The notes: generated by a model not told the origin, from the letters alone. A stretch of 64,000 nucleotides of DNA from Dehalobacterium formicoaceticum (GCF_002224645.1 NZ_CP022121.1:744001-808000), one strand, 5' to 3'; positions 5,090-60,784 are shown, counted from the first letter of the stretch. Numbers and translations are program-made.

Positions 5090-5111
5090 GCATGACCTTT
5101 CATTGGATCAC

Positions 5112-5150
5112 AAAAAAACACCTCGGCGTGGCACGCCGGGGTGTTTTTTT
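5112..5150 (+). terminator. Rho-independent terminator after the PKD protein
   Basis: An inverted repeat with arms AACACC(T)CGGCG and CGCCG(G)GGTGTT around a short loop is followed by seven T residues. The matching A tract on the 5' side would let it also act on transcripts from the other strand. Confidence 0.85.
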
Positions 5151-5319
5151 GCTCCACGTATAGGGTTTACCACGGGGACGTTTTGTTTGCCGCCATCAAC
5201 CCGGCATAATTTTCAGAATAGATATTATTAAAGATAAAGATGGAACCTATTGCCAAGATAATACGTCAAACTAATAAACAATTCGCTAAGGGAAAAATAA
5301 CTTAAGGAGCGTGCTGATC

Positions 5320-5451
5320 ATGAAAAGAGCCGAAATACGGGTATTGATTGCCTTATTGGCAGGGTTAATGATCCTGGGAGCAGGAGTGCCTCTATCCATG
5401 GCTGCGCTCAAGCCACCTGCCCTCATGGTAGAATCTAATCCACCTTTTTAA
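5320..5451 (+). CDS. Small membrane or secreted peptide, 43 residues
   Basis: An ATG-initiated 43-codon frame with a good AAGGAG site ten bases upstream (around 5304-5309). The product starts MKRAEIRVLIALLAGLMI, a positively charged N-terminus followed by one hydrophobic stretch to about residue 25, and ends in a short proline-containing tail (ESNPPF). This looks like a signal peptide or a single-pass membrane peptide. No family is recognised. It is isolated between the PKD gene terminator and the convergent MoxR gene. The initiation signals favour a real gene, but there is no homology evidence. Confidence 0.45.
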   Translation: MKRAEIRVLIALLAGLMILGAGVPLSMAALKPPALMVESNPPF

Positions 5452-5510
5452 CGGAAACAATCATGGGGGTATGGATTAAAAAGAAAAACCAGGTTAATCG
5501 TTCGCCTGTC

Positions 5511-6350
5511 CTATGACGTTACTAAAGCAATGTCTTCCTGATATTTTAGAATAAAATTGAAGGTGTCTTTAATTCTTTCGTCCTCCAGCGATTCAATATT
5601 TAGAGCTAACAATACCTTTGCCCAGTCCAGGGTTTCGGCGATACTGGGTTTTTTGCGCAGCTTTTGTTTACGCAGTTGCTGAATAAAATCCACAATTTGC
5701 TGGGACAGCTTTTCAGATATTCCCGGCACTTTTGTTTTGATAATTTCTAATTCCCGATCAAAGTCAGGATAATCTATGAAATAATGGACACATCGGCGTT
5801 TCAAGCCGTCGCTGAAATCCCGGGAGCCATTGCTGGTCAAAAACATCATGGGGATGGATTTTGCTTTTACCGTGCCAAATTCGGGAATGGTAACCTGAAA
5901 ATCAGACAGAGCTTCCAAAAGAAAACTTTCAAATTCTTCATCGCTTTTATCGATTTCATCAATCAAAAGCACCACCGGTTTTTCTGAAAGAAAAGCTTTC
6001 AGCAAGGGACGAGCCAGAAGAAAGTCGGGAGAAAAGATATCCTTTTGGGCGGAAGTCCAATTGGAATCATTTTTCGTAGTTGATTGCAAATATAAAAGCT
6101 GCTTTTGGTAATTCCATTCATAAAGGGCCTGATGTTCGTCCAGCCCTTCATAACACTGGAGTCGAATCAATTCCATATCAAAAGCCTGAGCCATGGACTT
6201 GGCCAGTTCTGTTTTTCCAACGCCTGCCGGACCTTCTAACAGAAGGGGTTTTTTTAAGAGAGAAGATAAACTTAAGATCGTGGCCAGGTTATGGTCGCAT
6301 AAATAGTCTTCCCGTTTTAAATTTTCTTTAATTTCCTCAATAGACAGCAT
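5511..6350 (-). CDS. MoxR-type AAA+ ATPase
   Basis: A 279-residue AAA+ ATPase of the MoxR/CoxD group. Walker A is GPAGVGKT at residues 40-47 and Walker B is LLIDEID at 127-133, with a sensor 1 region FLTSNGSRDFSDGLKRRC and the arginine finger in the following segment. These ATPases work as chaperones that load cofactors or remodel partner complexes, usually with a VWA-domain partner. The divergent gene at 6473 encodes just such a VWA protein, which supports a MoxR-VWA pair. Start ATG has a GGAGG site (rc of 6355-6361). The client is unknown because no CO dehydrogenase or other molybdo-hydroxylase genes lie nearby. Confidence 0.85.
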   Translation of the reverse strand: MLSIEEIKENLKREDYLCDHNLATILSLSSLLKKPLLLEGPAGVGKTELAKSMAQAFDMELIRLQCYEGLDEHQALYEWNYQKQLLYLQSTTKNDSNWTSAQKDIFSPDFLLARPLLKAFLSEKPVVLLIDEIDKSDEEFESFLLEALSDFQVTIPEFGTVKAKSIPMMFLTSNGSRDFSDGLKRRCVHYFIDYPDFDRELEIIKTKVPGISEKLSQQIVDFIQQLRKQKLRKKPSIAETLDWAKVLLALNIESLEDERIKDTFNFILKYQEDIALVTS

Positions 6351-44838: not shown

Positions 44839-45143
44839 GGTTCTGCTTTCAGAAAGCATAAATTTTTAAAGGTTGAAAGTATTAATTTTCTTTATTTTTT
44901 TGATCACTTCTGGTATTAGCCAAAGATGCTGCGCAGCCAGCTCATGATCGAGTCTAAAAGATGATTGCTCTAAAGCCTTGCTATATCTACATTTTAAGAT
45001 TTTTTACACTAAACTTGGATTATAACAAATAATTTGCATAAAATCATCTTCAAAAAAGAAGGAAATTGGTAAAAGATGCCTAATATAACACAATATTTGG
45101 CAATATGACAAAATATATTAATTATGTAAAGGGAGAGATATTT
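44839..45143. repeat. Gene-free stretch with a remnant of the DUF1002 gene 3' end
   Basis: No gene is seen. Bases 44905-44965 repeat the 3' end of the DUF1002 gene (46203-46258), including the run GATGCTGCGCAGCCAGCTCA, then diverge. Together with the duplicated terminator and the bzaE tail at 46072, this shows that the bzaE/DUF1002 junction is present twice as a direct repeat about 1.3 kb apart. Confidence 0.7.
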
Positions 45144-45686
45144 TTGAGGAAATTTGTCAATTACACACTTGTTTGTATGCTGTTCCTAATGTTGTGCCTG
45201 ATAGTTCTGCCAGGCACGTCCAAGGTGTGGGCGGAAGGAGAGACTTCCCTTCTTGAGCAAAAAACCCCTGATCAAATGTTAAAGGAAATGACAACAGGGT
45301 TAGATCCTAAGCTAAGGGAGGACTACCTGCCGGAGGAAGCCTGGACGGATAGAATGCTGGTACAATATGCTGCCGGAAAAAAAGAAACCGGTCGCAAAGA
45401 AATCATTACTGCTCTGAAAGGATCCTTTAAAGAATTTGGTACACTTAGTTTAGATGGGTGGGATCTGATCCATCTTACAGCAAAGCAGAATCCCTTGAAA
45501 GTGATCAAAGAATTGGAAGGCAAGGAAGGAATAATACATATTCAGCCGGATGAATTACTGTATCTGGCAGGAGCGGATCCGAATCTAAAACAGCAATGGA
45601 GTCTGGGTTTGGATGTGACTTTGGAACGTGTCTCCCTCAATCAGGATCAAGGATCTTCTCAGGTTATAGAAGGGAAAGAAGAATGA
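45144..45686 (+). CDS. Truncated subtilase (S8): signal peptide and propeptide only
   Basis: A 180-residue product from TTG 45144 (GGGAGAG upstream; the frame is open from ATG 45105). Residues 1-32 form a signal peptide (MRKFVNYTLVCMLFLMLC, then VWAEGE). The rest resembles an I9-type propeptide and ends at DPNLKQQWSLGLD, the point where the catalytic domain of secreted subtilases begins. The Asp and His parts of the triad are missing. After about 45682 the DNA becomes YD-repeat sequence. A matching C-terminal subtilase part with its serine lies at 47224, so this is probably the severed front of that gene. Confidence 0.6.
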   Translation: MRKFVNYTLVCMLFLMLCLIVLPGTSKVWAEGETSLLEQKTPDQMLKEMTTGLDPKLREDYLPEEAWTDRMLVQYAAGKKETGRKEIITALKGSFKEFGTLSLDGWDLIHLTAKQNPLKVIKELEGKEGIIHIQPDELLYLAGADPNLKQQWSLGLDVTLERVSLNQDQGSSQVIEGKEE

Positions 45687-46044
45687 ACGGGGAGCTTTAC
45701 TCTCACAAACCAGGCCTATGGGAGAGACCCGGACCTATGTTAATAACGCCGCCGGATTGCCTGTTCTAATGACGGATGCCACAGGCAAAAGCACCGCCTA
45801 TGCCTATGACTATGTGAATAGGCTCAAAGAAAAGAGAGCCAATTATGACGGAATCACCATCACCTATCACCCCACGGGTCAACCGGATCAATATGCGGTC
45901 TGGAAGGATACCGGGGGAAACAAGGTGTACGGAGATGCCCTGACCTACAGTTATTTTGGAGACGGGGTTACCCGGGAAAGAAAGGTGGGGAATTACAGCA
46001 CCACTTTCCAATATGATCCGGTTTTAAACCGGACATCTGTGCAA
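45682..46044 (+). pseudogene. YD-repeat (RHS) gene fragment
   Basis: About 360 bases homologous to 53985-54345 and 59324-59684 of the two RHS genes (TATGTTAATAACGCCG, then TATCACCCC and GGGGTTACCCGGGAAAG). The frame 45718-46062 gives 114 residues with YD-type wording (TYVNNAAGLPVLMTDATGKS; TFQYDPVLNRTSVQ) and then runs into unrelated bases. Both ends are abrupt, inside the repeat region of the parent. It has no signal peptide or ribosome site. Confidence 0.8.
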
Positions 46045-46071
46045 GTGTTTGTTGTAAAATAAAAATACCGG

Positions 46072-46183
46072 AAAATGCAGAAGGAAGATATCAAAAATTA
46101 AGCCAACTGCTGGTCCAAGGTTTCCCCCCTGTAAAAGAAGATGCCCGCTGAAGAATTTGGCAAAATCACTCAGCGGGCATCAA
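46072..46183. repeat. Remnant copy of the bzaE 3' end plus its terminator
   Basis: Bases 46072-46120 match bzaE 44631-44685 (GCAGAAGGAAGATATCAAAA, then CAACTGCTGGTCCAA). After an internal deletion the match resumes at CCCCTGTAA and continues into a diverged version of the bza terminator (GATGCCCGCTGA... with complement, 46141-46182). That hairpin now ends the DUF1002 gene on the minus strand, followed there by TTCTTTT. Confidence 0.75.
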
Positions 46184-46211
46184 ATTCTGGTTTTTTTGAT
46201 CAATCCTAGTT

Positions 46212-47081
46212 TTAGCCGAAGATGCTGCGCAGCCAGCTCATGATCGAGTCTAAAAGATTTTGGAAAAAGCCCTTGTTTTCATTTAGCGTATCCTTGACGA
46301 TATCAAGATTCCGGCTAATACTGTCCAATTGTTTGGTGATGGTATCAACATTCAAATCCAGCTTGCTGATTTTTTCCATTAGGTTGAGAATTTGATTGAC
46401 CTGCTCTTCGGAAAGATTGATCCCTAATTCCTGAGCAATATTTAAAATCACCTGTCGCATATCTTCCGGTGTTTTGATATTTTGCTGGGTAATCTCTTTT
46501 TTTACGTTTTGGATCAGTTTCACGGCTTCGTCTTTACCAATGTCCTGGCTGATATCTTCCGTGACGAAAAGCTCTTCATTGGCCGTTTCTTTGGCATCAG
46601 TGGATAGTTTTTCCCCAGTAGCTTCTTCAAAGGCCAGCATAATACCGGTGAGAGCCGTTGTTCCCGTGACATCAAAAGGAGCCGCTATCTGCACCTCCGC
46701 GTCTTTGACTCCTGCTGTGACCAAGGCGTTGGCATACATTTCCTTGGTTACCCAGGTAATATTATGGGTGCTGACGCCCAGACCCTCCCCTCTGGGCAAT
46801 AATTTGACATGAGAGGAAGAAATCGCTTTCGTACCGATCTTCTCCTTGGTGGCAATTCCTTTGAGATGCTCCTCCACATCTTGAATGGATACTTCGATAA
46901 TATCCACATCTCTTTCAGAGACACCGAATTCCTCCAGCATTTGGGTTCTTTGGGCAGCGGTTAAATCTGCGCCCAGGCTTACCGCTTCTGTTTTTCCAGC
47001 GAGAACAGCCAAGGGTGCAAGCATGAGCAACATGGTAATGACGCCGAGCATCATAAGGATTTTTCTGTTTTTAATGGACAT
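46212..47081 (-). CDS. DUF1002-family exported protein (YpuA-like)
   Basis: A 289-residue secreted protein. The start is ATG at 47081 with AGGAGTG upstream; the frame extends 20 codons further without a site. Residues 1-28 form a signal peptide (MSIKNRKILMMLGVITMLLM). The body has the DUF1002 pattern: SLGADLTAAQRTQMLEEFGV, then ITWVTKEMYANALVTAGVKD and PFDVTGTTALTGIM, and a helical C-terminal part. Function is unknown for the family, which is common in Firmicutes. It is convergent with the bza operon and is intact despite the duplications around it. Confidence 0.88.
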   Translation of the reverse strand: MSIKNRKILMMLGVITMLLMLAPLAVLAGKTEAVSLGADLTAAQRTQMLEEFGVSERDVDIIEVSIQDVEEHLKGIATKEKIGTKAISSSHVKLLPRGEGLGVSTHNITWVTKEMYANALVTAGVKDAEVQIAAPFDVTGTTALTGIMLAFEEATGEKLSTDAKETANEELFVTEDISQDIGKDEAVKLIQNVKKEITQQNIKTPEDMRQVILNIAQELGINLSEEQVNQILNLMEKISKLDLNVDTITKQLDSISRNLDIVKDTLNENKGFFQNLLDSIMSWLRSIFG

Positions 47082-47223
47082 AGCTTCACTCCTATTCAAA
47101 AATTTAGTTTTTCCCTTCCAGATATTATAGACTGTCTCCAACCTAAAAATGTTTCCTAAATTTTAAATTTTTATCTTCAGGGAAGTAGTCTTAAAATAAT
47201 CTAAGTACTATGGAAAATCATCC

Positions 47224-49773
47224 GTGGACATGGCAGCTCCCGGGGAAGTTATTCTAAGTACCTCCCCCGGAGGAAAATATGAATCCCGGCAAGGTACCTC
47301 CTTCTCCGCCGCTTTGGCGGCGGCTGCGGCCGCCCTGCTCCTTGAACAAAATCCGGATATGCAGCCCGCTGAGATAAAAAAGGCCCTGATGGAAACGGGA
47401 GATTTGTTGTCAACCCTAATAGAGAGAACCCAAACCGGCAGAAAAGTGAATGCAGGGAATGCCCTTGAAAAAATCAGACCGGATCAAATAACGGATATTG
47501 AAGGCAGTGTTATACCGGTGGATAGGGATATGCAGGTAAGGGAAAGTATTGATATGACAGTCCTCCGTCAGGGTGACGGCGGTAAGCCGGGCACGGTTAC
47601 AGGGGGATTTGGTTACCATATGATGATTGTGGACGGAACCGTCTGGGCCTGGGGCAGAAATTGGACAGGTCAATTGGGCGACGGGACAAATATAAATCGC
47701 GCCATGCCGGGGCCTGTGCGTAATTTATTTCAGGTAACTGCTGTGGACGGCGGTTTTGAACACAGCATCGCCTTAAAAAGTGACGGCACGGTCTGGACCT
47801 GGGGTAACAATAGCTATGGTAAATTAGGTGACGGAACAACTACCTCACGCTACGCACCGGTGCAGACAGCCGGATTATCCGATGTTACTGCCATTTCAGC
47901 CGGGTATGATTTTAATATTGCCCTAAAAAGCGACGGCACAGTATGGGCTTGGGGCAGAAACCGGTATGGCCAATTGGGTGACGGCACCACTGTGTCCAGC
48001 TCTTTACCGGTGCAGGTCAGCGGTTTGCGGAACATCATCGCTATCAGTGCCGGTTGTGAACATGCCTTGGCCATAAAAAGTGACGGTACCGTTTGGGCTT
48101 GGGGCAAAAATGGAAAAGGCCAGCTGGGTGACGGGACAAACACCGCGCGTAATACGCCGGTGCAGGTGACGGGCTTGAATTCAATTACTGCCATCTCCTG
48201 CGGAGTGGATCATACCCTGGCTGTTAAAGAGGACGGCACCGTCTGGGCCTGGGGAGATAATTCTTATGGCGCGTTAGGAGACGGCAGTTTGGTGGGTCGT
48301 AATATACCGGTCCAGGTCGATGGTTTACTCAATGCCCAAAAGGTCATTGCAGGATATTATTACAGTCATGTGCTGAAAGATGACGGTACCCTGTGGTCGG
48401 CAGGCTTCAATAATAGCGGAAGCCTGGGTGACGGAACATCAACAGACAGCAGTATCTTCAAAATGAATCCGTATCTCACTCAGGTAACAGAGGTAGGGGA
48501 GCATAACGGAAGGAATACCATGATCTTAAAAGCAGATGGTTCGTGCTTTTTGTGGGGGCCGAACAATTATGGTCAACTGGGGCCCGGCACCAACGCCTAT
48601 TATGAGAGTGTGCCGTTGAAGCTGGGCCTCCAGACCTCCATCGTTAAAGGAGCGGCCGGCAGCTATCACTCCATGGTCGTGGAAAAGGGTGAAGTCCTGG
48701 CCTGGGGATATAATGGAAGCGGCATCTTGGGAGACGGAACAACAACGAATCGCAATACACCGGCAAAGGTGCTGCAGCTGCAACAGGTGATGGGCATTTC
48801 CGGCAAGAATTTGCACAGTCGGGCCTTACTGAGTGACGGGACTGTTAAAGCCTGGGGTAATAACAGCCAGGGACAGTTAGGTGATAATACAAGAACAGGC
48901 AGACTCACCCCGGTGTCGGTGTTAAACCTAAACCATATCGTAGGAATCGGTGCCGGTTACTATCACAGTGCGGGCCTGAAAAGCGACGGAACCGTTTGGA
49001 CCTGGGGGATGAACAGTTCCGGCCAGCTGGGAACCGGAGATTATTACTTTTATCTGGCTCCGGTGCAGGTGAGCAGCTTGAGCGGCGTCAAAGCCATTTC
49101 CGTGGGCAGGCAGCATAATCTGGCTCTGAAAAGCGATGGCACTGTCTGGGCTTGGGGAGAAAACGCATATGGTCAGCTGGGTGATAATACGACGACGGGG
49201 CGGGTAGTTCCGGTGCAGGTCCTCGCCCTAAGCGATATCGTTGCTGTATCAGCCGGCGATAGAAATTCATTGGCCTTGAAAAGCGACGGTACGGTCTGGT
49301 CCTGGGGAGGCAGTACGACTCCTTATCTCCCGACGCAAATATCCACCTTAAGCAATGTAACAGGAATATCCGCAGGGGGTGTGCACAACCTGGTCTTAAA
49401 AAGCGATGGCACAGCCTATGCCTGGGGGCAAAACTACTACGGTCAGTTGGGGGATGGTACTAATACTACCCGGGGAGTACCTGTAAAGGTGCAGCGTTTC
49501 GAAAGCGGCGTCCTGGTATCGGCCGGATATGATTTTTCTTTAGGTCTAAGCAGTGATCATAATATCTGGACCTGGGGACAGAACACATATGGACAGTTGG
49601 GCGATGGTACCTTTAGATCCAATGTGTGGCCCAAGCCCAATATTTCTACGGGTCCCAGTTTCTATTATCAATATGATCATAACAATCGTTTAATCATGAG
49701 GCAAGGCAATACGACCTGGCAGTTTATATATGATCAGAACGGGAATCTGCTGTCCAAAGAACCGTTAAATTAA
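47224..49773 (+). CDS. Subtilase C-terminal fragment fused to 14 RCC1 repeats and a YD tail
   Basis: An 849-residue frame. Residues 1-82 are the last part of an S8 catalytic domain: VDMAAPGEVILST and the serine motif GTSFSAALAAAA. Residues about 125-825 hold 14 RCC1-like units with the core LKSDGTVWAWGxNxxGQLGDGT. The end (YYQYDHNNRLIMRQG; FIYDQNGNLLSKE) is YD-like and cut short. There is no signal peptide and no ribosome site; homology continues a few codons upstream (YGKSS) until a TAA at 47195-47200, so the gene is 5'-truncated. It was probably once joined to the propeptide at 45144. Expression is doubtful. Confidence 0.7.
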   Translation: MDMAAPGEVILSTSPGGKYESRQGTSFSAALAAAAAALLLEQNPDMQPAEIKKALMETGDLLSTLIERTQTGRKVNAGNALEKIRPDQITDIEGSVIPVDRDMQVRESIDMTVLRQGDGGKPGTVTGGFGYHMMIVDGTVWAWGRNWTGQLGDGTNINRAMPGPVRNLFQVTAVDGGFEHSIALKSDGTVWTWGNNSYGKLGDGTTTSRYAPVQTAGLSDVTAISAGYDFNIALKSDGTVWAWGRNRYGQLGDGTTVSSSLPVQVSGLRNIIAISAGCEHALAIKSDGTVWAWGKNGKGQLGDGTNTARNTPVQVTGLNSITAISCGVDHTLAVKEDGTVWAWGDNSYGALGDGSLVGRNIPVQVDGLLNAQKVIAGYYYSHVLKDDGTLWSAGFNNSGSLGDGTSTDSSIFKMNPYLTQVTEVGEHNGRNTMILKADGSCFLWGPNNYGQLGPGTNAYYESVPLKLGLQTSIVKGAAGSYHSMVVEKGEVLAWGYNGSGILGDGTTTNRNTPAKVLQLQQVMGISGKNLHSRALLSDGTVKAWGNNSQGQLGDNTRTGRLTPVSVLNLNHIVGIGAGYYHSAGLKSDGTVWTWGMNSSGQLGTGDYYFYLAPVQVSSLSGVKAISVGRQHNLALKSDGTVWAWGENAYGQLGDNTTTGRVVPVQVLALSDIVAVSAGDRNSLALKSDGTVWSWGGSTTPYLPTQISTLSNVTGISAGGVHNLVLKSDGTAYAWGQNYYGQLGDGTNTTRGVPVKVQRFESGVLVSAGYDFSLGLSSDHNIWTWGQNTYGQLGDGTFRSNVWPKPNISTGPSFYYQYDHNNRLIMRQGNTTWQFIYDQNGNLLSKEPLN

Positions 49774-49796: not shown

Positions 49797-50306
49797 TTGG
49801 CATTGAAAAAAATTATTGCGTGGATATTATTGGTGACATTTTTATTCGGCAGTATCCCGGTACCATCCTTGGCGGCTGCTTCATTCAAGGACTTAGATAT
49901 CGAAGAGATCTTTAAGGAAGATGACACAACCACCGCAGAGCCAAAATCTATTATTAATCACCAATATGTGGGCCTGGGTGATGAAGAAGAGGATAATTTT
50001 ATTGATTTGTCTCTGCCCGAAGGCACTGTCCGTGTAAATGCACTGAGTGTGTTGGTAAAAAGTATCTTAGAAGAAAATAACAGCTGGGACCGTTTGCGGA
50101 ATTATCTTTTTGAAGGAACAGGTTTTTTACTCCCTCCCAAAGCTGAGGTTCCTTCTCCGGAAAAACCGGTTTTAGAGCCGCAGCTGATTGAAGAAGAGGT
50201 AGGTGAAGAACCTGTCTCTGATCCCGTTATTGATATGAATGAAGATATTATCTCTGACCCGGCTGACGAGATGGTTGACGATATAAATGAAGAAACAGTC
50301 ACATAG
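49797..50306 (+). CDS. N-terminal part of a secreted RHS protein, cut by an amber codon
   Basis: A 169-residue frame starting at TTG 49797 or 49803. Residues 1-28 form a signal peptide (KKIIAWILLVTFLFGSIPVP); the rest is strongly acidic and low in complexity (EEEVGEEPVSDPVIDMNEDI). It ends at TAG 50304-50306. Reading on in the same frame gives 80 more acidic, Pro/Glu-rich codons without a stop and then the large RHS frame at 50547. The two are therefore one gene of about 2068 codons with a single in-frame amber codon. Confidence 0.7.
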   Translation: MALKKIIAWILLVTFLFGSIPVPSLAAASFKDLDIEEIFKEDDTTTAEPKSIINHQYVGLGDEEEDNFIDLSLPEGTVRVNALSVLVKSILEENNSWDRLRNYLFEGTGFLLPPKAEVPSPEKPVLEPQLIEEEVGEEPVSDPVIDMNEDIISDPADEMVDDINEETVT

Positions 50307-50546: not shown

Positions 50547-53500
50547 ATGGATAAATCAAATGAGGAAATACTTGAAGGCATACCGGATAACACACTTGAC
50601 CCTGCATTAGAGTCGGAACTAGAGGCAATCATGCAGCAGGTAAACGAAGAAGAGAGCTGGTTCAACAGCCTGGTGGGCCCATCCATTGCCAATAATGTCC
50701 ATAACAATAAATATGCTGCCTGGGACGATACCAGTGAAATTGTATCACCCCAAACAGGTGAATTAACCCTGCGCTTCGATGACATTCAGTTGCCGGGGAG
50801 AAACGGTCTGGATCTAACGATCGGCAGAATTTATCAAAGCAGTCAGGCGCGGACGGGGAAATGGGATATCTCCCCTTTCGAAGATCAGCAAAACAGTTTT
50901 TCTTCATATTTTCAGGAGCGTTATAATTTAGGTACCGGCTGGTCCTTCGCCTTTCCTTCCGTTCAGGTAGAACAAGACAGCGATCAAGATATTGAAAGCC
51001 GAGAGTTATATTATCATACCGGTAACGGTGAGGTATACCTGGTTAAAATGACTTCACAAACCGGGGATAGCAATCTGGAGAATTATTATCGCAAAGATTG
51101 TGAATTCAGGGGAGATACCACCTATGTGTATATGGACGGTACGGAAGGAGACGGTTTGGAAAGTATCCGCTCCCAGTATGTTTTTGAGACGGCGGATAAG
51201 ACAAAGCAATATTTTGCGGCGGATGGCCGTCTGATGGCGATAATTGACCGGTTTGGCAACAAAATTGAGTTTAAGCATAAATTGTTTCCCGTAACCAACC
51301 GGGTGGTAAATTACGATTTTGACGACAGCAACCAGATGGATAGCGGTGTACCCTGGACCTTTAATGAAGCTTACCTTAAAATAGCAACTGATAAGGGATA
51401 CCAGGATAATACTTCCTTGTGGTTTGAGCACCCTTCTTCCACCAGGACCACCCAATCTGCTTTTTCCAAGCCGATTAAAGTGACACCCAACCGCAAGCAT
51501 CGTATCAGCGGTTATTTGGCGGATGCCTTGGATGCGGGGGTTGCCTCTGTGCGCATTCACCAATATTCAAAATGGCGCGGCATCCATTATAATGCATATT
51601 TGGGCGGCTGGGTGTCCGGATATTTCCTGGAAAAAGTGCCGAACAGTTCAATTGAAATTGCCAGCTCCAGTTACGGGGATTGGAATTGGCGCGGTTTTGA
51701 GGAATATTTCACCGTCGACGATGATACCGATTATATCCAGATTGAATTCTTAGCCAAGAGTGCTAAGGGAGATGCCTGGTTGGATAAGGTATGTTTGGAT
51801 CAAGTGTATCCTTTGATCACAGAAATCACGGATAGTATCGGCAGGAAGATCAATTTTCAATATACGGATAATTTTTATGAAGAGGATGGCGAGGATGATA
51901 ACAACAATCCCATCACCGTAACCATAAAGGATCCCAGCCTGAGTCAAACCAAAACCCTTACTTATCAGCGCGGGGTCATTAATACTCAATCTTATGATTA
52001 TTTATTTCAAGGAGTTCTTTTAAGTTATAAAAACGGTGAATTGGATATGGATGATTACCAGGTCTATCCGGGGGAGGACTATTCCGGTCAAAGAAGATAT
52101 CCCAGTCTGGGAAGCTACCATGACGGGGAAGATTTATACGAATATAAATACAGTCTAAAAATGAACCTTTTCTCTTTTGTCAATAAGAAATCTTCAGGAG
52201 GCTATGCAACTATTGGTGAGGTGTTGCTAAGTCACATTTCACTACGCAACAGCAGGATCAATTATAATTTTTATGAGACGAAACCCAAGCATTTGGGAAA
52301 AAGAGGCTTTTATGAACAATCATATCTGACAGACCGGGAAGAAGATTATCGGGTTAATAACAAATGGGACCGCGGAGAACATAACAAAAGAACCTACAGC
52401 TATGGAGGTACTTATCAGGGAAATCCCTATGATAATGAAACCGGCTACTCGGAGACCTTTTACAGTAATCATGATTTACCTAAAAATACAGGGTTCCAGT
52501 GGATCTGCAGCGTAGAGCAGGAGGACGGATTAAAAACTGATTACGTCTTCAAGGGAAGCAGCGCCATGGGGCTCCGTGAAGACCGGAGGGTCACCTACCA
52601 TTCCGGGGGTGAAAAGGAAACTCTGTACTATGAAGAGTATGACGGGACATACCATAACCAGCCCCTCCGCATCAAAAGTGTGCAGGAAAACAGCGGCGGT
52701 ACCTATCCCCTCTATCAGGGCTATACCTATAATACCTGGGGCGGCGTAGCAAAGGAAACGAAACCATTGACCCCGGCCCAATGGGAAGACAGCACCCAAA
52801 AGGAACTGAATACTGTGAGCTATACCTATCATCCCACGTATAAGTTTCCTGCATCCACAAGCTATTATCAAAAAGAGGGTGTATTATTAACGGAAAATAC
52901 CGAATATACATCCTCCGGTGCGATTCAGTCCACAACTAATGCCAAGGGGGAAACCACCTATTTTGAATATGCGGACGGGGCCCATCCCGGGAACTGCAGC
53001 AAAACCTGGCGGGCGCTCCCGAATGGTCAGCAGGAGATTACAGAGTATCAGTATGATGCTAATTATGCTGCCTATCCCACCCGGATTATGCAAAAGTATA
53101 CGGAAGACGGAGTACCTAAAACCAGTATCACCACTCGTCAATATGATTTTCTATGGGGCCATCTGATCAGTGAAGATGATGCCTTGGGTAATGAAACCAC
53201 CTATCAATATGATACTCAGGGACGGTTGATGTCTGAATGGTCTCCCTGGGATCTGGAAGATAAGAGTGGTACTTATATCGCAATTCGGTATTTTACATAT
53301 GACAAAGTGCTGTTGACGGACTATGGCTATAACGGCCGGGGGGCTTTTCGGGTACAGACGTCGACCATCCATTTTCGCAGTATCATCGACCGGCCGATTA
53401 TCAATCGCACCTACGATTATTATGATGATTACGGCAATCTTCTGGTGAAAGAGGAATGGGAGCATGTGCAGGGTCTTACCCGTGCAACCCAATTCCACTA

Positions 53501-56003
53501 TGGCGACTACGGCCGGTTGGTTTCATCAAAAGATCCCCTCCAACGAGAAACTGTCTACAGCATCGATGAATGGGATCGTTTGAAATCCGTCACCGATGTC
53601 CAGGGGAATAAACAATTCTATGAGTATGATATTGTACAGCAAAGTAAGGATACCTATTTCCAGCCGGCAGGGGGCAGCAGTGAAAACCACTACCGGGAGT
53701 GCTTCGATGAAAGAGGCCGGATCATTGAGCGCAGGGCCTATCCCGTAAGCGGCGGCCCCGGGGTATCGGAAAGCTACACCTACGACCTTTTGGATAATCT
53801 GATCCGTCTTACAGACGGGAAAGAAAACCAAACTGATTTTCACTATGACGCTTTGGGGAATGTAAGCAGTGTCACCAACGCCTTAGGAGAAAACACAGAT
53901 TACGCTTACAACCATCTGAATCAAATCAGTGAAATCAAGCAATATGAAAATAGCCAGAGCATCATTAACAGCAAAGCCTATGATGAAAGGGGAGCTTTAC
54001 TCTCACAAACCAGACCCATGGGTGAAACTCGCACCTATGTTAATAACGCCGTCGGATTGCCTGTTCTGATGACCGATGCCACGGGTAAGAGCACCGCCTA
54101 CTCCTATGATTATCTGAATCGGCTTAAAGAGAAGAGGGCCAATGAGGATGGGATCACCCTCACCTATCACCCCATGGGTCAGCCGGATCAATATGCAGTC
54201 TGGAAGGATACCGGGGGCAGCAAGGTGTACGGGGATGCCCTGACCTATGAATATTTTGGCGATGGAGTCACCCGGGAAAGAATGTTGGGAAACTACAGCA
54301 CCGCTTTCCAATACGATCCGGTTTTAAACCGGACATCTGTGCAGGATCCCTTTAACCTGACGGTGCAGTACAGCTATGACAGTCTGAACCATCCGGATCA
54401 GGTAACCGTGGAAGGGCAGGTCTTCGATTACGAATTCTACGGGGACGGGATGCTGAAATCGGTGCAGTACCCTGCGGTCGGAGGAAAGATTCCCCTCAGC
54501 ACCTATACTTATGATAATATGAACCGCCTGACTTTCTTGGTGAATAAAGTGGGCACTCAGATTATCTCCCAATACAGCTACCGGTATGATGATAACAGCA
54601 ATATCATCGAGCAGGTGGAAAACGGGAGCGTGACCCGTTATACTTATGATGTATTGAACCGACTGATTGAAACTACCTTGCCGGACGGGACAAAGAAAAC
54701 TTATGGGTATGATACCCGGGGCAACCGTACCCAGATGAGGGGTACCGCAGAGGATGAACTGACCGGTATACCCGGTACCTTTACCTATAACAATTGGGAC
54801 CAGTTGGACGAGTTTAGCAGCCAAGGGGAGGTAACCCAGTATCAATATGACGGGGAAGGTCTGCGTACCGCAAAGACCAATGACGGGGATACCCTGCGCT
54901 ATCATTTGGATGATCAGGGGAGAGTCCTGGCCGAATCCAACGGAGCGGGTCAGGTAACAGCCCAAAACATCTGGGGCCACCGAATGCTGGCCCGCAAGAT
55001 CAGCGGCAGCTACTATTATTATTTCTACAATGGTCATGGCGATGTGGTGCAGATCGTGAACAGCAGCGGTACTGTGGTTAACCGCTACACCTACGATGAA
55101 TGGGGGAATGTGCTGAGTCAGACGGAAGGGATTGATAATCCCATCCTCTATGCGGGAGAGTATTATGATGAAGAGAGCGGGCTGTACTATTTAAGGGCCA
55201 GGTATTACGATCCCTCAGTGGGCAGGTTTATATCGGAGGATCCTGCTAGGCACGGCTTGAACTGGTACACATATTGCTTTAATAATCCGGTGAATTTTAT
55301 TGATCCTAGTGGATTAGCATATGTCCAACTCCGGCCAACGATTCAAAATTTAGGTGGCAGCATCAGTTGGAATTCCAATACGAATGTAGGAACTGTTTAT
55401 TTGGATGGAAGCTCTGTCACAGTATATGACCGTGATGGCAATGGTAACTTCATTCAAGGTGGTTTAATGTATTCCAATGATACATGGCTTTTTGCAGCAT
55501 TAGCAGTAAAATTTGATCTAGGAAATGGTTGGACTGGCAGAATAGAACGTGATGCATCGGGTGCTAGATCAGATAAGCATGCGCACGTGTATAAAGGAGA
55601 CTCAAAATATGCACAAAATGAAGATGGATCGCCGCATGATGGTTCTAAAGGAGGTCCTCCCGGTAGCGTAAAAAATAATTTGAAAAAGAAAAAGGGATGG
55701 GATTGGGACGCAAAAGAAAAAGATTGGGCGAATAAGATTTATATAGGTGTAGATGATGGTGGTACCCATTATATAAAATATCCTAATGGTAGAGCGGTTA
55801 AGGTTGCGCCGTATAGACCGATGGGATATACGGCGCCGTATTGGCCAAATAGAAATGAATTAATTGAGTATTATACTGGGCCTACTTATATAAATAATAA
55901 TGCTGGAAACAGCAATAACGGAAAAGGAATGATTGTCCCAATGCCAAATTCCATGCCCATACCTATGCCGTCACCAGCCCCCATGCCAATACCTATTTTT
56001 TGA
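50547..56003 (+). CDS. RHS/YD-repeat polymorphic toxin, main part
   Basis: An 1818-residue frame, continuous with 49797-50306 apart from one TAG. The first ATG (50547) has no good ribosome site. In order: RHS-type N-terminal region (PQTGELTLRFDDIQLPGRNG), a carbohydrate-binding-like beta domain (residues about 255-413), some 25 YD repeats, the RHS core (LYYLRARYYDPSVGRFISED, about residue 1550) and the NFIDPSGL boundary (about 1586). After this comes a 230-residue variable tip with HAHVYKGDSKYAQNEDGSPH and a Pro/Met-rich tail. The architecture is that of contact-dependent or secreted polymorphic toxins. Tip activity is unknown; its His/Asp-rich stretch would suit a nuclease. Confidence 0.82.
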   Translation: MDKSNEEILEGIPDNTLDPALESELEAIMQQVNEEESWFNSLVGPSIANNVHNNKYAAWDDTSEIVSPQTGELTLRFDDIQLPGRNGLDLTIGRIYQSSQARTGKWDISPFEDQQNSFSSYFQERYNLGTGWSFAFPSVQVEQDSDQDIESRELYYHTGNGEVYLVKMTSQTGDSNLENYYRKDCEFRGDTTYVYMDGTEGDGLESIRSQYVFETADKTKQYFAADGRLMAIIDRFGNKIEFKHKLFPVTNRVVNYDFDDSNQMDSGVPWTFNEAYLKIATDKGYQDNTSLWFEHPSSTRTTQSAFSKPIKVTPNRKHRISGYLADALDAGVASVRIHQYSKWRGIHYNAYLGGWVSGYFLEKVPNSSIEIASSSYGDWNWRGFEEYFTVDDDTDYIQIEFLAKSAKGDAWLDKVCLDQVYPLITEITDSIGRKINFQYTDNFYEEDGEDDNNNPITVTIKDPSLSQTKTLTYQRGVINTQSYDYLFQGVLLSYKNGELDMDDYQVYPGEDYSGQRRYPSLGSYHDGEDLYEYKYSLKMNLFSFVNKKSSGGYATIGEVLLSHISLRNSRINYNFYETKPKHLGKRGFYEQSYLTDREEDYRVNNKWDRGEHNKRTYSYGGTYQGNPYDNETGYSETFYSNHDLPKNTGFQWICSVEQEDGLKTDYVFKGSSAMGLREDRRVTYHSGGEKETLYYEEYDGTYHNQPLRIKSVQENSGGTYPLYQGYTYNTWGGVAKETKPLTPAQWEDSTQKELNTVSYTYHPTYKFPASTSYYQKEGVLLTENTEYTSSGAIQSTTNAKGETTYFEYADGAHPGNCSKTWRALPNGQQEITEYQYDANYAAYPTRIMQKYTEDGVPKTSITTRQYDFLWGHLISEDDALGNETTYQYDTQGRLMSEWSPWDLEDKSGTYIAIRYFTYDKVLLTDYGYNGRGAFRVQTSTIHFRSIIDRPIINRTYDYYDDYGNLLVKEEWEHVQGLTRATQFHYGDYGRLVSSKDPLQRETVYSIDEWDRLKSVTDVQGNKQFYEYDIVQQSKDTYFQPAGGSSENHYRECFDERGRIIERRAYPVSGGPGVSESYTYDLLDNLIRLTDGKENQTDFHYDALGNVSSVTNALGENTDYAYNHLNQISEIKQYENSQSIINSKAYDERGALLSQTRPMGETRTYVNNAVGLPVLMTDATGKSTAYSYDYLNRLKEKRANEDGITLTYHPMGQPDQYAVWKDTGGSKVYGDALTYEYFGDGVTRERMLGNYSTAFQYDPVLNRTSVQDPFNLTVQYSYDSLNHPDQVTVEGQVFDYEFYGDGMLKSVQYPAVGGKIPLSTYTYDNMNRLTFLVNKVGTQIISQYSYRYDDNSNIIEQVENGSVTRYTYDVLNRLIETTLPDGTKKTYGYDTRGNRTQMRGTAEDELTGIPGTFTYNNWDQLDEFSSQGEVTQYQYDGEGLRTAKTNDGDTLRYHLDDQGRVLAESNGAGQVTAQNIWGHRMLARKISGSYYYYFYNGHGDVVQIVNSSGTVVNRYTYDEWGNVLSQTEGIDNPILYAGEYYDEESGLYYLRARYYDPSVGRFISEDPARHGLNWYTYCFNNPVNFIDPSGLAYVQLRPTIQNLGGSISWNSNTNVGTVYLDGSSVTVYDRDGNGNFIQGGLMYSNDTWLFAALAVKFDLGNGWTGRIERDASGARSDKHAHVYKGDSKYAQNEDGSPHDGSKGGPPGSVKNNLKKKKGWDWDAKEKDWANKIYIGVDDGGTHYIKYPNGRAVKVAPYRPMGYTAPYWPNRNELIEYYTGPTYINNNAGNSNNGKGMIVPMPNSMPIPMPSPAPMPIPIF

Positions 56004-56021
56004 GATAGGAGGACGGAGAAA

Positions 56022-56744
56022 ATGAGTCAAAAAAGAACAAAGATTTATATTAATGCAAATGCTAAAGATCGTGAATTTATTTATACAGGCATAGAATTTT
56101 ATGAATTTGTACATTATTTGCGGAATCCAATAGAGCATATTCTTCTTTTAAAGTCAAACTATATGGGAAATGGTTTTGCAAACAACTTTGAATTGGTAGA
56201 AGGATTAGATGAGGTTGGATTATTAGCAAAAGAAGATGTTAACAGTTATGGGGACTTCTGCTTTGTGGATTATAAGCAAGCGGACATGGTTAATCAATTA
56301 ACAGATGAACAGATAGCAGAGTTGCTATATTTGGGGCATATGTATAAACCATTAACAACACCTTTTTTTGAGAAGTTAGACAACCAATTCGCTTATCTGG
56401 CGCATGATGATGGGTTTTTCTGTAAACTATATTGTCGACATATTGAAGATTTTGCTACATTATTGGCTAAAAAAATTCAATCATGTATTGAGGGCAAAAC
56501 AAAATATAGCATAAGCGAACCAGATAAGCTAATCAGCTGTTGCTTGTTGGAATTAGCGGAAAATGGTTTGCTAATTGATTTCGATGAATTAACGGCTGAT
56601 GATGACCACATTTTCGTAAATTATTTTTTAGTGGGCAAATACACCGACATGGATAGAATATTAAACGAAAATGAACGTCTTAAAGAAAAGGCCATAATTC
56701 AAAACCGTCTTGCTTACACACAATGCAAGTGGAAGTTTGATTAA
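56022..56744 (+). CDS. Candidate immunity protein for the RHS toxin tip
   Basis: A 240-residue, cytosolic-looking protein (no signal peptide or membrane helix) starting 18 bases after the toxin gene with an AGGAGG site. I do not recognise the family. It is acidic, rich in Phe, Tyr and Leu, and clearly more AT-rich than the RHS core, like the toxin tip. Position, size and base composition are those of immunity genes that accompany RHS tips. Function is inferred from context only. Confidence 0.6.
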   Translation: MSQKRTKIYINANAKDREFIYTGIEFYEFVHYLRNPIEHILLLKSNYMGNGFANNFELVEGLDEVGLLAKEDVNSYGDFCFVDYKQADMVNQLTDEQIAELLYLGHMYKPLTTPFFEKLDNQFAYLAHDDGFFCKLYCRHIEDFATLLAKKIQSCIEGKTKYSISEPDKLISCCLLELAENGLLIDFDELTADDDHIFVNYFLVGKYTDMDRILNENERLKEKAIIQNRLAYTQCKWKFD

Positions 56745-57332: not shown

Positions 57333-57408
57333 GGGATGTCAGGGGGACTGGGTTGTTGGCATTCTAATTCTTTAGAAGTGTTAGCAATGTATGTCAACAC
57401 CTCTATCC
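57333..57408. repeat. RHS-border stem-loop element B
   Basis: GGATGTCAGGGGGACTGGGT, then TGTTGGCATTCTAA, and after about 20 bases GTTAGCAATGTATGTCAACA. The arms GGTTGTTGGCATT and AATGTATGTCAACACC pair imperfectly. It ends exactly where homology to the first RHS gene begins (CTCTATCCGGGGGA, compare 52061). Confidence 0.6.
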
Positions 57409-57559
57409 GGGGGAAGAATATTCCGGCCAAAGAAGATATCCCAGCCTGGTAAGCTACCATGACGGGGAAGATTTATATGAATATAGATACAGACTAAGAA
57501 CGGACTTTTTCTCTTTTGTCAACAAGGAATATTCAGGTGGCTATGCAACGATTGGTGAG

Positions 57560-60500
57560 GTGTTATTAAGAAGCATCTCACTGCGTAACAGCCGGATTAA
57601 TTATGATTTTAATGAGACGAACCCCAAGCATTTGGGGAGAAGAGGCTTTTATGAACAATCCTATCTGACCTCCCGGGAAGAACAATACTTAGTTAATAAC
57701 AAATGGGACGGCGGAGGACATAACAAAAGAACCTACAGTTACGGTGGTACCTACCAGGGAAATCCCTATTACAATGAAACCGGCTACTCGGAGACCTTTT
57801 ACAGTAATCATGATTTACCTAAAAATACAGGGTTCCAGTGGATCTGCAGCGTAGAGCAGGAGGACGGATTAAAAACTGATTACGTCTTCAAAGGAAGCAG
57901 CGCCATGGGCCTTCGTGAAGATCAAAGGGTCACCTACCATTCCGGGGGTGAAAAGGAAACTCTGTACTATGAAGAGTATGACGGGACATACCATAACCAG
58001 CCCCTCCGCATCAAAAGTGTGCAGGAAAACAGCGGCGGTACCTATCCCCTCTATCAGGGCTATACCTATAATACCTGGGGCGGCGTAGCAAAGGAAACGA
58101 AACCATTGACCCCGGCCCAATGGGAAGACAGCACCCAAAAGGAACTGAATACTGTGAGCTATACCTATCATCCCACGTATAAGTTTCCTGCATCCACAAG
58201 CTATTATCAAAAAGAGGGTGTATTATTAACGGAAAATACCGAATATACATCCTCCGGTGCGATTCAGTCCACAACTAATGCCAAGGGGGAAACCACCTAT
58301 TTTGAATATGCGGACGGGGCCCATCCCGGGAACTGCAGCAAAACCTGGCGGGCGCTCCCGAATGGTCAGCAGGAGATTACAGAGTATCAGTATGATGCTA
58401 ATTATGCTGCCTATCCCACCCGGATTATGCAAAAGTATACGGAAGACGGAGTACCTAAAACCAGTATCACCACTCGTCAATATGATTTTCTATGGGGCCA
58501 TCTGATCAGTGAAGATGATGCCTTGGGTAATGAAACCACCTATCAATATGATACTCAGGGACGGTTGATGTCTGAATGGTCTCCCTGGGATCTGGAAGAT
58601 AAGAGTGGTACTTATATCGCAATTCGGTATTTTACATATGACAAAGTGCTGTTGACGGACTATGGCTATAACGGCCGGGGGGCTTTTCGGGTACAGACGT
58701 CGACCATCCATTTTCGCAGTATCATCGACCGGCCGATTATCAATCGCACCTACGATTATTATGATGATTACGGCAATCTTCTGGTGAAAGAGGAATGGGA
58801 GCATGTGCAGGGTCTTACCCGTGCAACCCAATTCCACTATGGCGACTACGGCCGGTTGGTTTCATCAAAAGATCCCCTCCAACGAGAAACTGTCTACAGC
58901 ATCGATGAATGGGATCGTTTGAAATCCGTCACCGATGTCCAGGGGAATAAACAATTCTATGAGTATGATATTGTACAGCAAAGTAAGGATACCTATTTCC
59001 AGCCGGCAGGGGGCAGCAGTGAAAACCACTACCGGGAGTGCTTCGATGAAAGAGGCCGGATCATTGAGCGCAGGGCCTATCCCGTAAGCGGCGGCTCTGG
59101 GGTACAGGAAAGCTATACCTATGACCTTTTGGATAATTTGATCCGTCTTACAGATGGGAGAGGAAACCAAACAGATTTTCACTATGACCCTTTGGGTAAT
59201 GTAACCGGCGTCACCAACGCCTTAGGAGAAAACACGGATTACGCTTACAACCATCTGAATCAAATCAGTGAAATCAAGCAATATGAAAACAGCCAGAGCA
59301 TCATTAACAGCAAAGCTTATGATGAGCGTGGAGCTTTGCTCTCACAAACCAGGCCCATGGGGGAAACTCGCACCTATGTTAATAACGCCGCCGGATTGCC
59401 TGTTTTGATGACGGATGCCACAGGCAAAAGCACCGCCTATTCTTATGACTATCTGAATCGGCCCAAAGAAAAGAGGGCCAATGATGACGGCATCACCATC
59501 ACCTATCACCCCATGGGCCAGCCCGATCAATATGAGGTCTGGAAGGATACCGGGGGCAGCAAGGTGTACGGGGATACCCTGACCTATGAATATTTTGGCG
59601 ACGGAGTCACCCGGGAAAGAAAGTTGGGTAATTACAGCACTGTTTTTCAATACGACCAGGTTTTAAACCGGACGTCCGTGCAGGATCCCTTTAACTTGAC
59701 GGTTCAGTACAGCTATGACAGTCTGAACAATCCGGATCAGGTAACCGTGGAAGGGCAGGTCTTCGATTACGAATTCTACGGGGACGGGATGCTGAAATCG
59801 GTGCAGTATCCTGCGGTCGGAGGAAAGATTCCCCTCAGCACCTATACTTATGATAATATGAACCGCCTGACTTTCTTGGTGAATAAAGTGGGCACTCAGA
59901 TTATCTCCCAATATAGCTACCGGTATGATGATAACAGCAATATTATTGAGCAGGTGGAAAACGGGAGCGTGACCCGTTATACTTATGATGTATTGAACCG
60001 ACTGATTGAAACTACCTTGCCGGACGGGACAAAGAAAACTTATGGGTATGATACCCGGGGCAACCGTACCCAGATGAGGGGTACCGCAGAGGATGAACTG
60101 ACCGGTATACCCAGTACCTTTACCTATAACAATTGGGATCAATTGGCCCAGTTTAGCAGCCAAGGGGAGGTAACCCAGTATCAATATGACGGGGAAGGTC
60201 TGCGCACCGCGAAGATCCAGGGCACGGATACCCTGCGCTATCATTTGGATGATCAGGGGAGAGTCCTGGCTGAATCCAACGGATCTGGTCAGTTAACAGC
60301 CCAAAACATCTGGGGCCACCGAATGCTGGCCCGCAAGATCAGCGGCAGCTACTATTATTATTTTTACAATGGCCATGGTGATGTGGTGCAGATCGTGAAC
60401 AGCAGCGGTGCTGTAGTCAACCGCTACACCTATGACGAATGGGGGAATGTGCTTAGTCAGACGGAAGGGATTGATAATCCTATCCTCTATGCGGGAGAGT

Positions 60501-60784
60501 ACTATGATGAGGAGAGTGGGCTGTACTATTTAAGGGCCAGGTATTACGATCCCTCTGTGGGCAGGTTTATTTCGGAGGACAGTAATGAGGGGCAGGTCAC
60601 CAATCCGCTAAGTTTGAATCTGTATCAATATTGTTATAATAACCCGGTACTAGGATGTCGGAGGGACGGGGTTATTGGCATTCTAAGTTGGTCATTGGGG
60701 GTGTCAGCAATGTCAATACCCCCGTCTCCCGGACAACTATTATGGGTGCTTACGCCCGGATCCTCCCTTGCTCCCGGGAAGTAG
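57560..60784 (+). CDS. 5'-truncated second RHS/YD-repeat gene
   Basis: A 1074-residue frame homologous to 52221-55246 of the first RHS gene at a constant offset of 5339 bases with no indel seen. Homology and open frame reach back to about 57401, but there is no signal peptide, ribosome site or proper start, so the gene is a headless copy. The RHS core LYYLRARYYDPSVGRFISED is intact. The tip then differs: YQYCYNNPVLGCRRDGVIG followed by about 35 residues encoded mainly by stem-loop element C. It lacks a toxin tip and an immunity gene. It may serve as a silent donor for recombination with the first gene. Confidence 0.75.
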   Translation: MLLRSISLRNSRINYDFNETNPKHLGRRGFYEQSYLTSREEQYLVNNKWDGGGHNKRTYSYGGTYQGNPYYNETGYSETFYSNHDLPKNTGFQWICSVEQEDGLKTDYVFKGSSAMGLREDQRVTYHSGGEKETLYYEEYDGTYHNQPLRIKSVQENSGGTYPLYQGYTYNTWGGVAKETKPLTPAQWEDSTQKELNTVSYTYHPTYKFPASTSYYQKEGVLLTENTEYTSSGAIQSTTNAKGETTYFEYADGAHPGNCSKTWRALPNGQQEITEYQYDANYAAYPTRIMQKYTEDGVPKTSITTRQYDFLWGHLISEDDALGNETTYQYDTQGRLMSEWSPWDLEDKSGTYIAIRYFTYDKVLLTDYGYNGRGAFRVQTSTIHFRSIIDRPIINRTYDYYDDYGNLLVKEEWEHVQGLTRATQFHYGDYGRLVSSKDPLQRETVYSIDEWDRLKSVTDVQGNKQFYEYDIVQQSKDTYFQPAGGSSENHYRECFDERGRIIERRAYPVSGGSGVQESYTYDLLDNLIRLTDGRGNQTDFHYDPLGNVTGVTNALGENTDYAYNHLNQISEIKQYENSQSIINSKAYDERGALLSQTRPMGETRTYVNNAAGLPVLMTDATGKSTAYSYDYLNRPKEKRANDDGITITYHPMGQPDQYEVWKDTGGSKVYGDTLTYEYFGDGVTRERKLGNYSTVFQYDQVLNRTSVQDPFNLTVQYSYDSLNNPDQVTVEGQVFDYEFYGDGMLKSVQYPAVGGKIPLSTYTYDNMNRLTFLVNKVGTQIISQYSYRYDDNSNIIEQVENGSVTRYTYDVLNRLIETTLPDGTKKTYGYDTRGNRTQMRGTAEDELTGIPSTFTYNNWDQLAQFSSQGEVTQYQYDGEGLRTAKIQGTDTLRYHLDDQGRVLAESNGSGQLTAQNIWGHRMLARKISGSYYYYFYNGHGDVVQIVNSSGAVVNRYTYDEWGNVLSQTEGIDNPILYAGEYYDEESGLYYLRARYYDPSVGRFISEDSNEGQVTNPLSLNLYQYCYNNPVLGCRRDGVIGILSWSLGVSAMSIPPSPGQLLWVLTPGSSLAPGK
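60653..60733. repeat. RHS-border stem-loop element C
   Basis: GGATGTCGGAGGGACGGGGT, TATTGGCATTCTAA, then GGGGGTGTCAGCAATGTCAA and TACCCCCGTCTCC. The arms GAGGGACGGGG(T)TATTG(G)CATT and AATGTCAATACCCCCGTCTC pair. It follows directly on the NNPV codons where the second RHS copy leaves its core. Confidence 0.65.

What the first reader, a model, noticed from the sequence alone, without database searches (positions are those of the whole stretch)
55240..56744. Uncharacterised RHS toxin tip with an unrecognised immunity partner
After the DPSGL boundary the gene carries a 230-residue AT-rich tip with HAHVYKGDSKYAQNEDGSPH and a lysine-rich KNNLKKKKGWDWD stretch, then a tail of Met-Pro repeats. The next gene, 18 bases on, is 240 codons, AT-rich and of no family I recognise. 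Together they look like a newly acquired toxin-immunity cassette in a Gram-positive host that exports the protein by a signal peptide.
Basis: partly seen in the sequence, partly recalled or inferred. Interest (0 to 1): 0.65.

Follow-up and report, generated by a model that had tools for sequence, protein, structure and literature searches.

The report
RHS toxin tip with histidine-motif domain
A bacterium that lives on dichloromethane carries a modular toxin-type surface gene whose end piece resembles small secreted, bacteriocin-like proteins of Bacillus plasmids; the next gene could be its antidote, but it belongs to a wider bacterial family that is usually found away from toxins.

Summary
An RHS protein (50547-56003, Dehalobacterium formicoaceticum) has a foreign tip after DPSGL, and 18 bp on lies a 240-codon gene. 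A tandem RHS copy is 95% identical up to 55240, where the match stops. Tip and partner share third-position GC (0.294/0.295; core 0.523), so they look like one acquired cassette.

The tip has relatives. Its centre (55506-55712) carries an invariant HxH[VI]-x-G-x-H motif, shared with one other RHS tip (which also bears Pfam Tox-WTIP) and with secreted proteins of small Bacillus, Priestia and Clostridioides plasmids, most with a hydrophobic tail and each followed by a short partner gene. No library searched names the domain.

The partner is not an orphan. It belongs to an unnamed Bacillota family, mostly chromosomal genes near ddl, mgtE, rodA or glmU; its own branch includes a plasmid copy and a decayed copy beside an Imm1 gene. 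Immunity is plausible, not shown.

Correction: the signal-peptide ORF is cut from the RHS body by an in-frame TAG (50304-50306). The genome encodes pyrrolysine machinery, so TAG may be read through; otherwise the gene is a relic.

Best reading: a new variant of RHS toxin. Toxicity and pairing are untested.

The parts
49797..50306 (+). Signal-peptide and acidic-linker ORF (169 aa), in the same frame as the RHS ORF, ending in TAG
50304..50306 (+). In-frame TAG separating the signal-peptide part from the RHS body; the paralogue L048 has GAC at the aligned codon and stays open through to the RHS region at this place
50547..56003 (+). RHS/YD-repeat protein ORF (1818 aa from the first ATG), core plus tip
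   Evidence: RHS_repeat, TIGR03696, TIGR01643
55240..55240 (+). Point where homology with the tandem RHS copy (57402-60579) ends: tip-exchange boundary
55302..55316 (+). DPSGL motif, the usual RHS core/tip boundary
   Evidence: read directly
55317..55505 (+). Linker that resembles the Cu_amine_oxidN1-type stalk (weak)
   Evidence: PF07833 E 0.073, below cut-off; stalk-type proteins also hit; a similar segment seen by eye after DPSG in paralogue L046
55506..55712 (+). Central tip domain ('HVH domain') with lysine-rich helix
   Evidence: alignments A1, A2; hhalign against plasmid proteins Prob 97.1, E 6.5e-11
55578..55637 (+). HAHV...GSPH: the HxH[VI]-x-G-x-H motif, invariant in 12 relatives
55713..56000 (+). 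C-terminal tail, Tyr/Pro-rich then Met-Pro repeats, no hydrophobic helix
   Evidence: maximum 19-residue hydropathy 0.43 against 1.5-2.8 in most plasmid relatives
56022..56744 (+). Partner gene P0001 (240 aa), candidate immunity protein, member of an unnamed Bacillota family
57402..60784 (+). Tandem, 5'- and 3'-truncated RHS copy; 95.2% identical to 52063-55240, with about 1 kb at 100%
47224..49773 (+). Upstream subtilase C-terminus plus RCC1 repeats; its front part lies at 45105-45686, interrupted

Best explanation
This is an RHS-type polymorphic toxin gene of Dehalobacterium formicoaceticum that received a new tip and its downstream gene as one cassette by recombination at the core/tip boundary. 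The RHS shell would carry the tip and release it after DPSGL. The likely active part is a small domain with an invariant HxH...G-x-H histidine motif, also used in secreted, bacteriocin-like proteins of small Gram-positive plasmids; I expect it to harm a competing Gram-positive cell. Whether the histidines are catalytic or bind metal is inferred. The 240-aa partner is most likely the cognate immunity protein, recruited from a wider, mostly chromosomal Bacillota family. Export needs read-through of one in-frame TAG (possible in this pyrrolysine-coding genome); without it the gene is silent. Shown: anatomy, boundary, shared composition, domain relationship, TAG, Pyl genes. Inferred: toxicity, immunity, export, mechanism.
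For: RHS core families over cut-off; homology to the tandem copy stops at 55240; tip and partner share GC3 0.29 against 0.52 for the core; core copies under purifying selection, pN/pS 0.14 over 1006 codons; central domain related to plasmid secreted proteins, hhalign Prob 97.1 and E 6.5e-11, with the motif in 12 of 12 sequences; each plasmid relative is followed within about 10-35 bp by a 134-157 aa gene, as in toxin-immunity pairs; the related RHS tip L012 carries Tox-WTIP, a predicted toxin; the partner occurs once in this genome and in none of three same-family genomes; its nearest branch holds a plasmid gene and a decayed copy overlapping an Imm1 gene; an intact paralogous RHS gene in the same genome has its own tip and a small downstream gene with a sub-threshold Imm32 hit.
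Against: No toxin family matches the tip and its structure model is poor outside the central domain (mean pLDDT 49). The three kinds of gene next to this domain (window, L012, plasmids) are unrelated in sequence. Most partner relatives are not beside a toxin. The TAG separates signal peptide and body. The neighbouring RHS and protease genes are broken.
Confidence: 0.45

Rival explanations
1. The locus is a decaying RHS element: the TAG is a plain nonsense mutation, the protein is not made or not exported, and tip and partner are leftovers.
For: In-frame TAG at 50304-50306 where the paralogue L048 has GAC; no well-spaced ribosome site at the next ATG, 50547. The upstream subtilase is interrupted, the tandem RHS copy is truncated at both ends, and L048 is itself interrupted by an in-frame TAG and a transposase.
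Against: The tip (228 codons) and partner (240 codons) are open and the partner keeps its family's conserved positions; core copies show purifying selection; the genome has pylS and tRNA-Pyl(CUA), so TAG need not stop translation.
Confidence: 0.35
2. The partner is not an immunity protein but an independent mobile member of a Bacillota housekeeping-type family that happens to follow the tip.
For: At least ten relatives lie near ddl, mgtE, rodA, glmU or other ordinary genes without a toxin; the closest relative (L003, 42-47% identity) follows glmU.
Against: Placed 18 bp behind the tip with a ribosome site and the same unusual GC3, between two RHS copies; absent from three same-family genomes; nearest branch contains a plasmid copy and an Imm1-adjacent copy.
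Confidence: 0.3
3. The tip acts as a membrane-active, pore-forming toxin like Tox-WTIP.
For: The related RHS tip L012 carries Tox-WTIP (PF15654, E 5.6e-18), listed as pore-forming with two membrane helices (PMC3482391); most plasmid relatives end in a hydrophobic helix.
Against: The window tip gives no PF15654 match and has no hydrophobic helix.
Confidence: 0.1

Closest known systems
RHS/YD-repeat polymorphic toxins of Gram-positive bacteria (WapA type)
   Same: YD repeats, Rhs_assc_core, DPSGL boundary, exchangeable tip, small gene behind the tip, signal peptide encoded upstream in frame
   Different: Tip domain and partner are in none of the family libraries searched; an in-frame TAG lies between signal peptide and body
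Secreted HVH-domain proteins of small plasmids (B. pumilus pPL10 NC_001858 and pPL7065 NC_004932, B. altitudinis pGR8, Priestia flexa, Clostridioides sp.)
   Same: Central domain with HxH[VI]-x-G-x-H and lysine-rich helix; followed at once by a partner gene
   Different: They are 125-198 aa proteins, most with their own signal peptide and a hydrophobic tail; their partner genes are unrelated to P0001. From memory only, pPL10 was described in the 1970s as carrying a killing activity; I found no open text for this
Tox-WTIP (PF15654)
   Same: Found on the RHS tip L012 that shares the HVH domain
   Different: The window tip lacks the profile match and the membrane helices
Unnamed Bacillota family of P0001 (Listeria gene between the Lmo0850 gene and ddl; Lysinibacillus WP_069482832.1)
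   Same: Conserved block G-D-F-C-W-V-D-F...ELLYLGH...PF..KL.N..YL..DD...K.Y.R over about 240 aa
   Different: Relatives are mostly stand-alone chromosomal genes, not behind toxins

Membership tests
RHS polymorphic toxin | RHS/YD repeats and RHS-associated core domain | tested here: met
   PF05593 E 1.8e-46, TIGR03696 92.6 bits against 32.5
RHS polymorphic toxin | Exchangeable C-terminal tip behind a conserved boundary | tested here: met
   95% identity to the tandem copy ends at 55240; paralogues L046 and L047 carry other tips
RHS polymorphic toxin | Toxic tip | not testable with these tools
   needs expression; no toxin family matched
RHS polymorphic toxin | Cognate immunity gene next to the tip | tested here: inconclusive
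   gene present 18 bp on with the same GC3, but its relatives are mostly toxin-free
RHS polymorphic toxin (Gram-positive, exported) | Signal peptide on the same reading frame without interruption | tested here: not met
   in-frame TAG at 50304-50306; may be decoded
Tox-WTIP (PF15654) | Profile match | tested here: not met
   no match at E 1 or E 0.5
Tox-WTIP (PF15654) | Two membrane-spanning helices and Wx[ST]IP | tested here: not met
   maximum hydropathy 0.43; no WxTIP
Plasmid HVH-domain secreted proteins | HVH domain with HxH[VI]-x-G-x-H | tested here: met
Plasmid HVH-domain secreted proteins | Hydrophobic C-terminal helix | tested here: not met
Known immunity families in Pfam (Imm numbers, SUKH) | Profile match of the partner or its relatives | tested here: not met
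HicA toxin (PF07927) | Profile relationship with the HVH domain | tested here: not met
   hhalign Prob 0.1-1.3 against a positive control of 96.8
Cu_amine_oxidN1 stalk | Profile match of 55317-55505 | tested here: inconclusive
   E 0.073, 13.5 bits against a cut-off of 24.2

The most novel reading that the evidence does not exclude
The TAG is decoded as pyrrolysine, so that a secreted RHS toxin is made in full only when the amber-decoding machinery is active: a pyrrolysine-containing polymorphic toxin whose export is gated by the genetic code, with a previously undescribed histidine-motif toxin domain at its tip.
Probability: 0.1. Interest if true: 0.75.

Novelty: new variant of a known kind. 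Interest (0 to 1): 0.42.

Why it matters
If the tip is toxic, it defines an undescribed toxin domain that links RHS proteins with secreted proteins of classic Bacillus pumilus plasmids. The partner would show how an immunity role can arise within, or be confused with, a common chromosomal family of unknown function. The TAG offers a direct test of whether pyrrolysine decoding in bacteria reaches beyond methylamine methyltransferases.

Tried and rejected
Family scans of tip and partner against Pfam, NCBIfam, PHROGs, PADLOC and PDB sequences: nothing significant for the window proteins; the partner's 4wn4 hit (E 3e-4) covers only about 30 residues at its C-terminus, does not reappear in the profile search, and was set aside. 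Viral-contig scans with the tip, with A1, A3 and with the pPL7065 protein: no relatives. Phage records: none for the tip; for the partner, five phage-labelled Listeria/Enterococcus records of which four give partial matches. The genome-contig scan with A1 returned only the L012 locus. Fold search of the partner model (pTM 0.81) and of the poor tip model (pTM 0.37): no significant PDB match. HicA as the fold of the HVH domain: rejected. A histidine-triad (HINT) resemblance, E 0.37 at best: treated as chance. Homology between P0001 and the plasmid partner genes or the gene behind L012: rejected. No Rfam match and no terminator-like site near the pair. Literature on pPL10 killing: not in the library.

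Full report
Host and setting. The window is G000:C1:744001-808000 of a closed 3,766,545-base genome. That size equals the one listed for Dehalobacterium formicoaceticum DMC, CP022121.1, in PMC6778437, which also lists pyrrolysine biosynthesis for it. I take this as the host.

What is there. The ORF 50547-56003 (1818 aa) has RHS repeats and the RHS-associated core. DPSGL lies at 55302-55316 and is followed by 228 codons. The next gene, 56022-56744, starts 18 bases after the stop behind an aggagg ribosome site.

It is a swapped cassette. A second RHS copy (57402-60784) is 95.2% identical to 52063-55240, with about 1 kb at 100%, and the match stops at 55240. The core has GC3 0.523, the tip 0.294 and the partner 0.295; the partner is the lowest of 47 window ORFs. 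The partner occurs once in this genome and in none of three other genomes of the family. Core copies differ with pN/pS 0.14, so the core has been under purifying selection. Other RHS loci of the genome carry different tips; the intact one (L047) has a small downstream gene with a sub-threshold Imm32 match.

The tip. Whole-tip searches gave no named family. Three parts can be told apart. First, a linker resembling the Cu_amine_oxidN1 stalk, weakly. Second, a central domain at 55506-55712. Third, a Tyr/Pro and Met-Pro tail. The central domain is 41% identical over the aligned part to an RHS tip of a Bacillota MAG, L012/L031. A weak tblastn hit (E 0.03) led to B. pumilus plasmid proteins, and from there to a family on small Bacillus, Priestia and Clostridioides plasmids and in Bacillus genomes. 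Profile comparison supports the link: Prob 97.1, E 6.5e-11 for the window sequence alone and Prob 95.8 for the two RHS tips. H-x-H-[VI] and a later G-x(1-4)-H occur in all 12 sequences. The plasmid proteins have a signal peptide, this domain and, in most, a hydrophobic tail, and each is followed at once by a 134-157 aa gene. That layout is what one expects of a secreted bacteriocin with immunity; it is an inference. From memory only, pPL10 was described as a killing plasmid; no open text was found.

L012 also carries Tox-WTIP, which the source paper lists as pore-forming (PMC3482391). The window tip does not match that profile and has no hydrophobic helix, so I do not file it there. What the tips share is the histidine-motif domain, while what follows it varies. 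HicA-like folding was tested and rejected with a working positive control. The structure model is usable only for the central domain (block pLDDT 70-81, short strands then helices) and gave no PDB match.

The partner. No library names it, but tblastn and genome searches found a family across Bacillota. Seven of 388 genomes of the phylum had it. Contexts: glmU (L003), mgtE (L023, L057), rodA/ftsW (L058), rodA with ddl (L008, L026), ddl (L024, L010), the Lmo0850 gene with sugR and ddl (L006/L009), and others. None of these shows a toxin beside it. A maximum-likelihood tree puts the window protein with L003, then with a C. difficile plasmid gene and a decayed copy in G193 (96/94 support). That decayed copy overlaps an Imm1 gene (PF14430 over its cut-off). 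So the branch that holds the window protein has a mobile, immunity-type side, while the family as a whole does not. The model has pTM 0.81 and no PDB relative. The genes behind the three kinds of HVH carrier are unrelated, which weakens, but does not exclude, a recognition role.

The signal peptide. The ORF 49797-50306 starts with a clear signal peptide and is in the RHS frame, but ends in TAG at 50304-50306. The paralogue L048 has GAC there and stays open, and the 80 codons after the TAG still align. The genome has pylS (365 bits against a cut-off of 178), tRNA-Pyl(CUA) and an MttB-like gene split at TAG. TAG is also an ordinary stop here, about 9 of 80 ORFs. The sister RHS L048 has a different in-frame TAG and is otherwise broken. 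Decoding and decay both fit; I favour neither strongly.

Verdict. An RHS polymorphic-toxin gene with a cassette not seen before in the sources searched: a new variant of a known kind. Toxicity, immunity and export remain to be shown.

Noticed in passing
window 50304-50306; G000:C1:3663573-3664295; L055:9469-9540: In-frame TAG in the RHS gene of a genome with pylS and tRNA-Pyl; the sister RHS L048 has another in-frame TAG (TGG position in the window copy).
   Followed up: partly
window 45105-49773: A subtilase-RCC1 gene upstream of the RHS gene is interrupted by an RHS fragment (45683-45982) and a DUF1002 gene on the minus strand (46212-47141); L047 has the same subtilase-RCC1-RHS order.
   Followed up: partly
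window 44895-44962 and 46191-46258: A 68-bp direct repeat (93%) that overlaps the 3' end of the DUF1002 gene, flanking the inserted piece.
   Followed up: no
window 52663-53712 against 58002-59051: About 1 kb at 100% identity inside otherwise 83-97% identical RHS copies, which suggests recent gene conversion.
   Followed up: no
L036 (pPL10) 3648-4571; L035 (pPL7065) 4013-4939: Two-gene HVH cassette on classic B. pumilus plasmids, annotated as hypothetical proteins; candidate for a killing and immunity pair.
   Followed up: partly
L007 (CP065518.1) 4926-5702 against L008 3926-4702: A record labelled Stenotrophomonas rhizophila plasmid carries a nearly identical Lysinibacillus gene; probably contamination or a mislabelled assembly.
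   Followed up: no
L065 8631-9463 (G193): Imm1 gene followed by an overlapping decayed relative of the partner, next to an integrase-like gene and transposases.
   Followed up: partly
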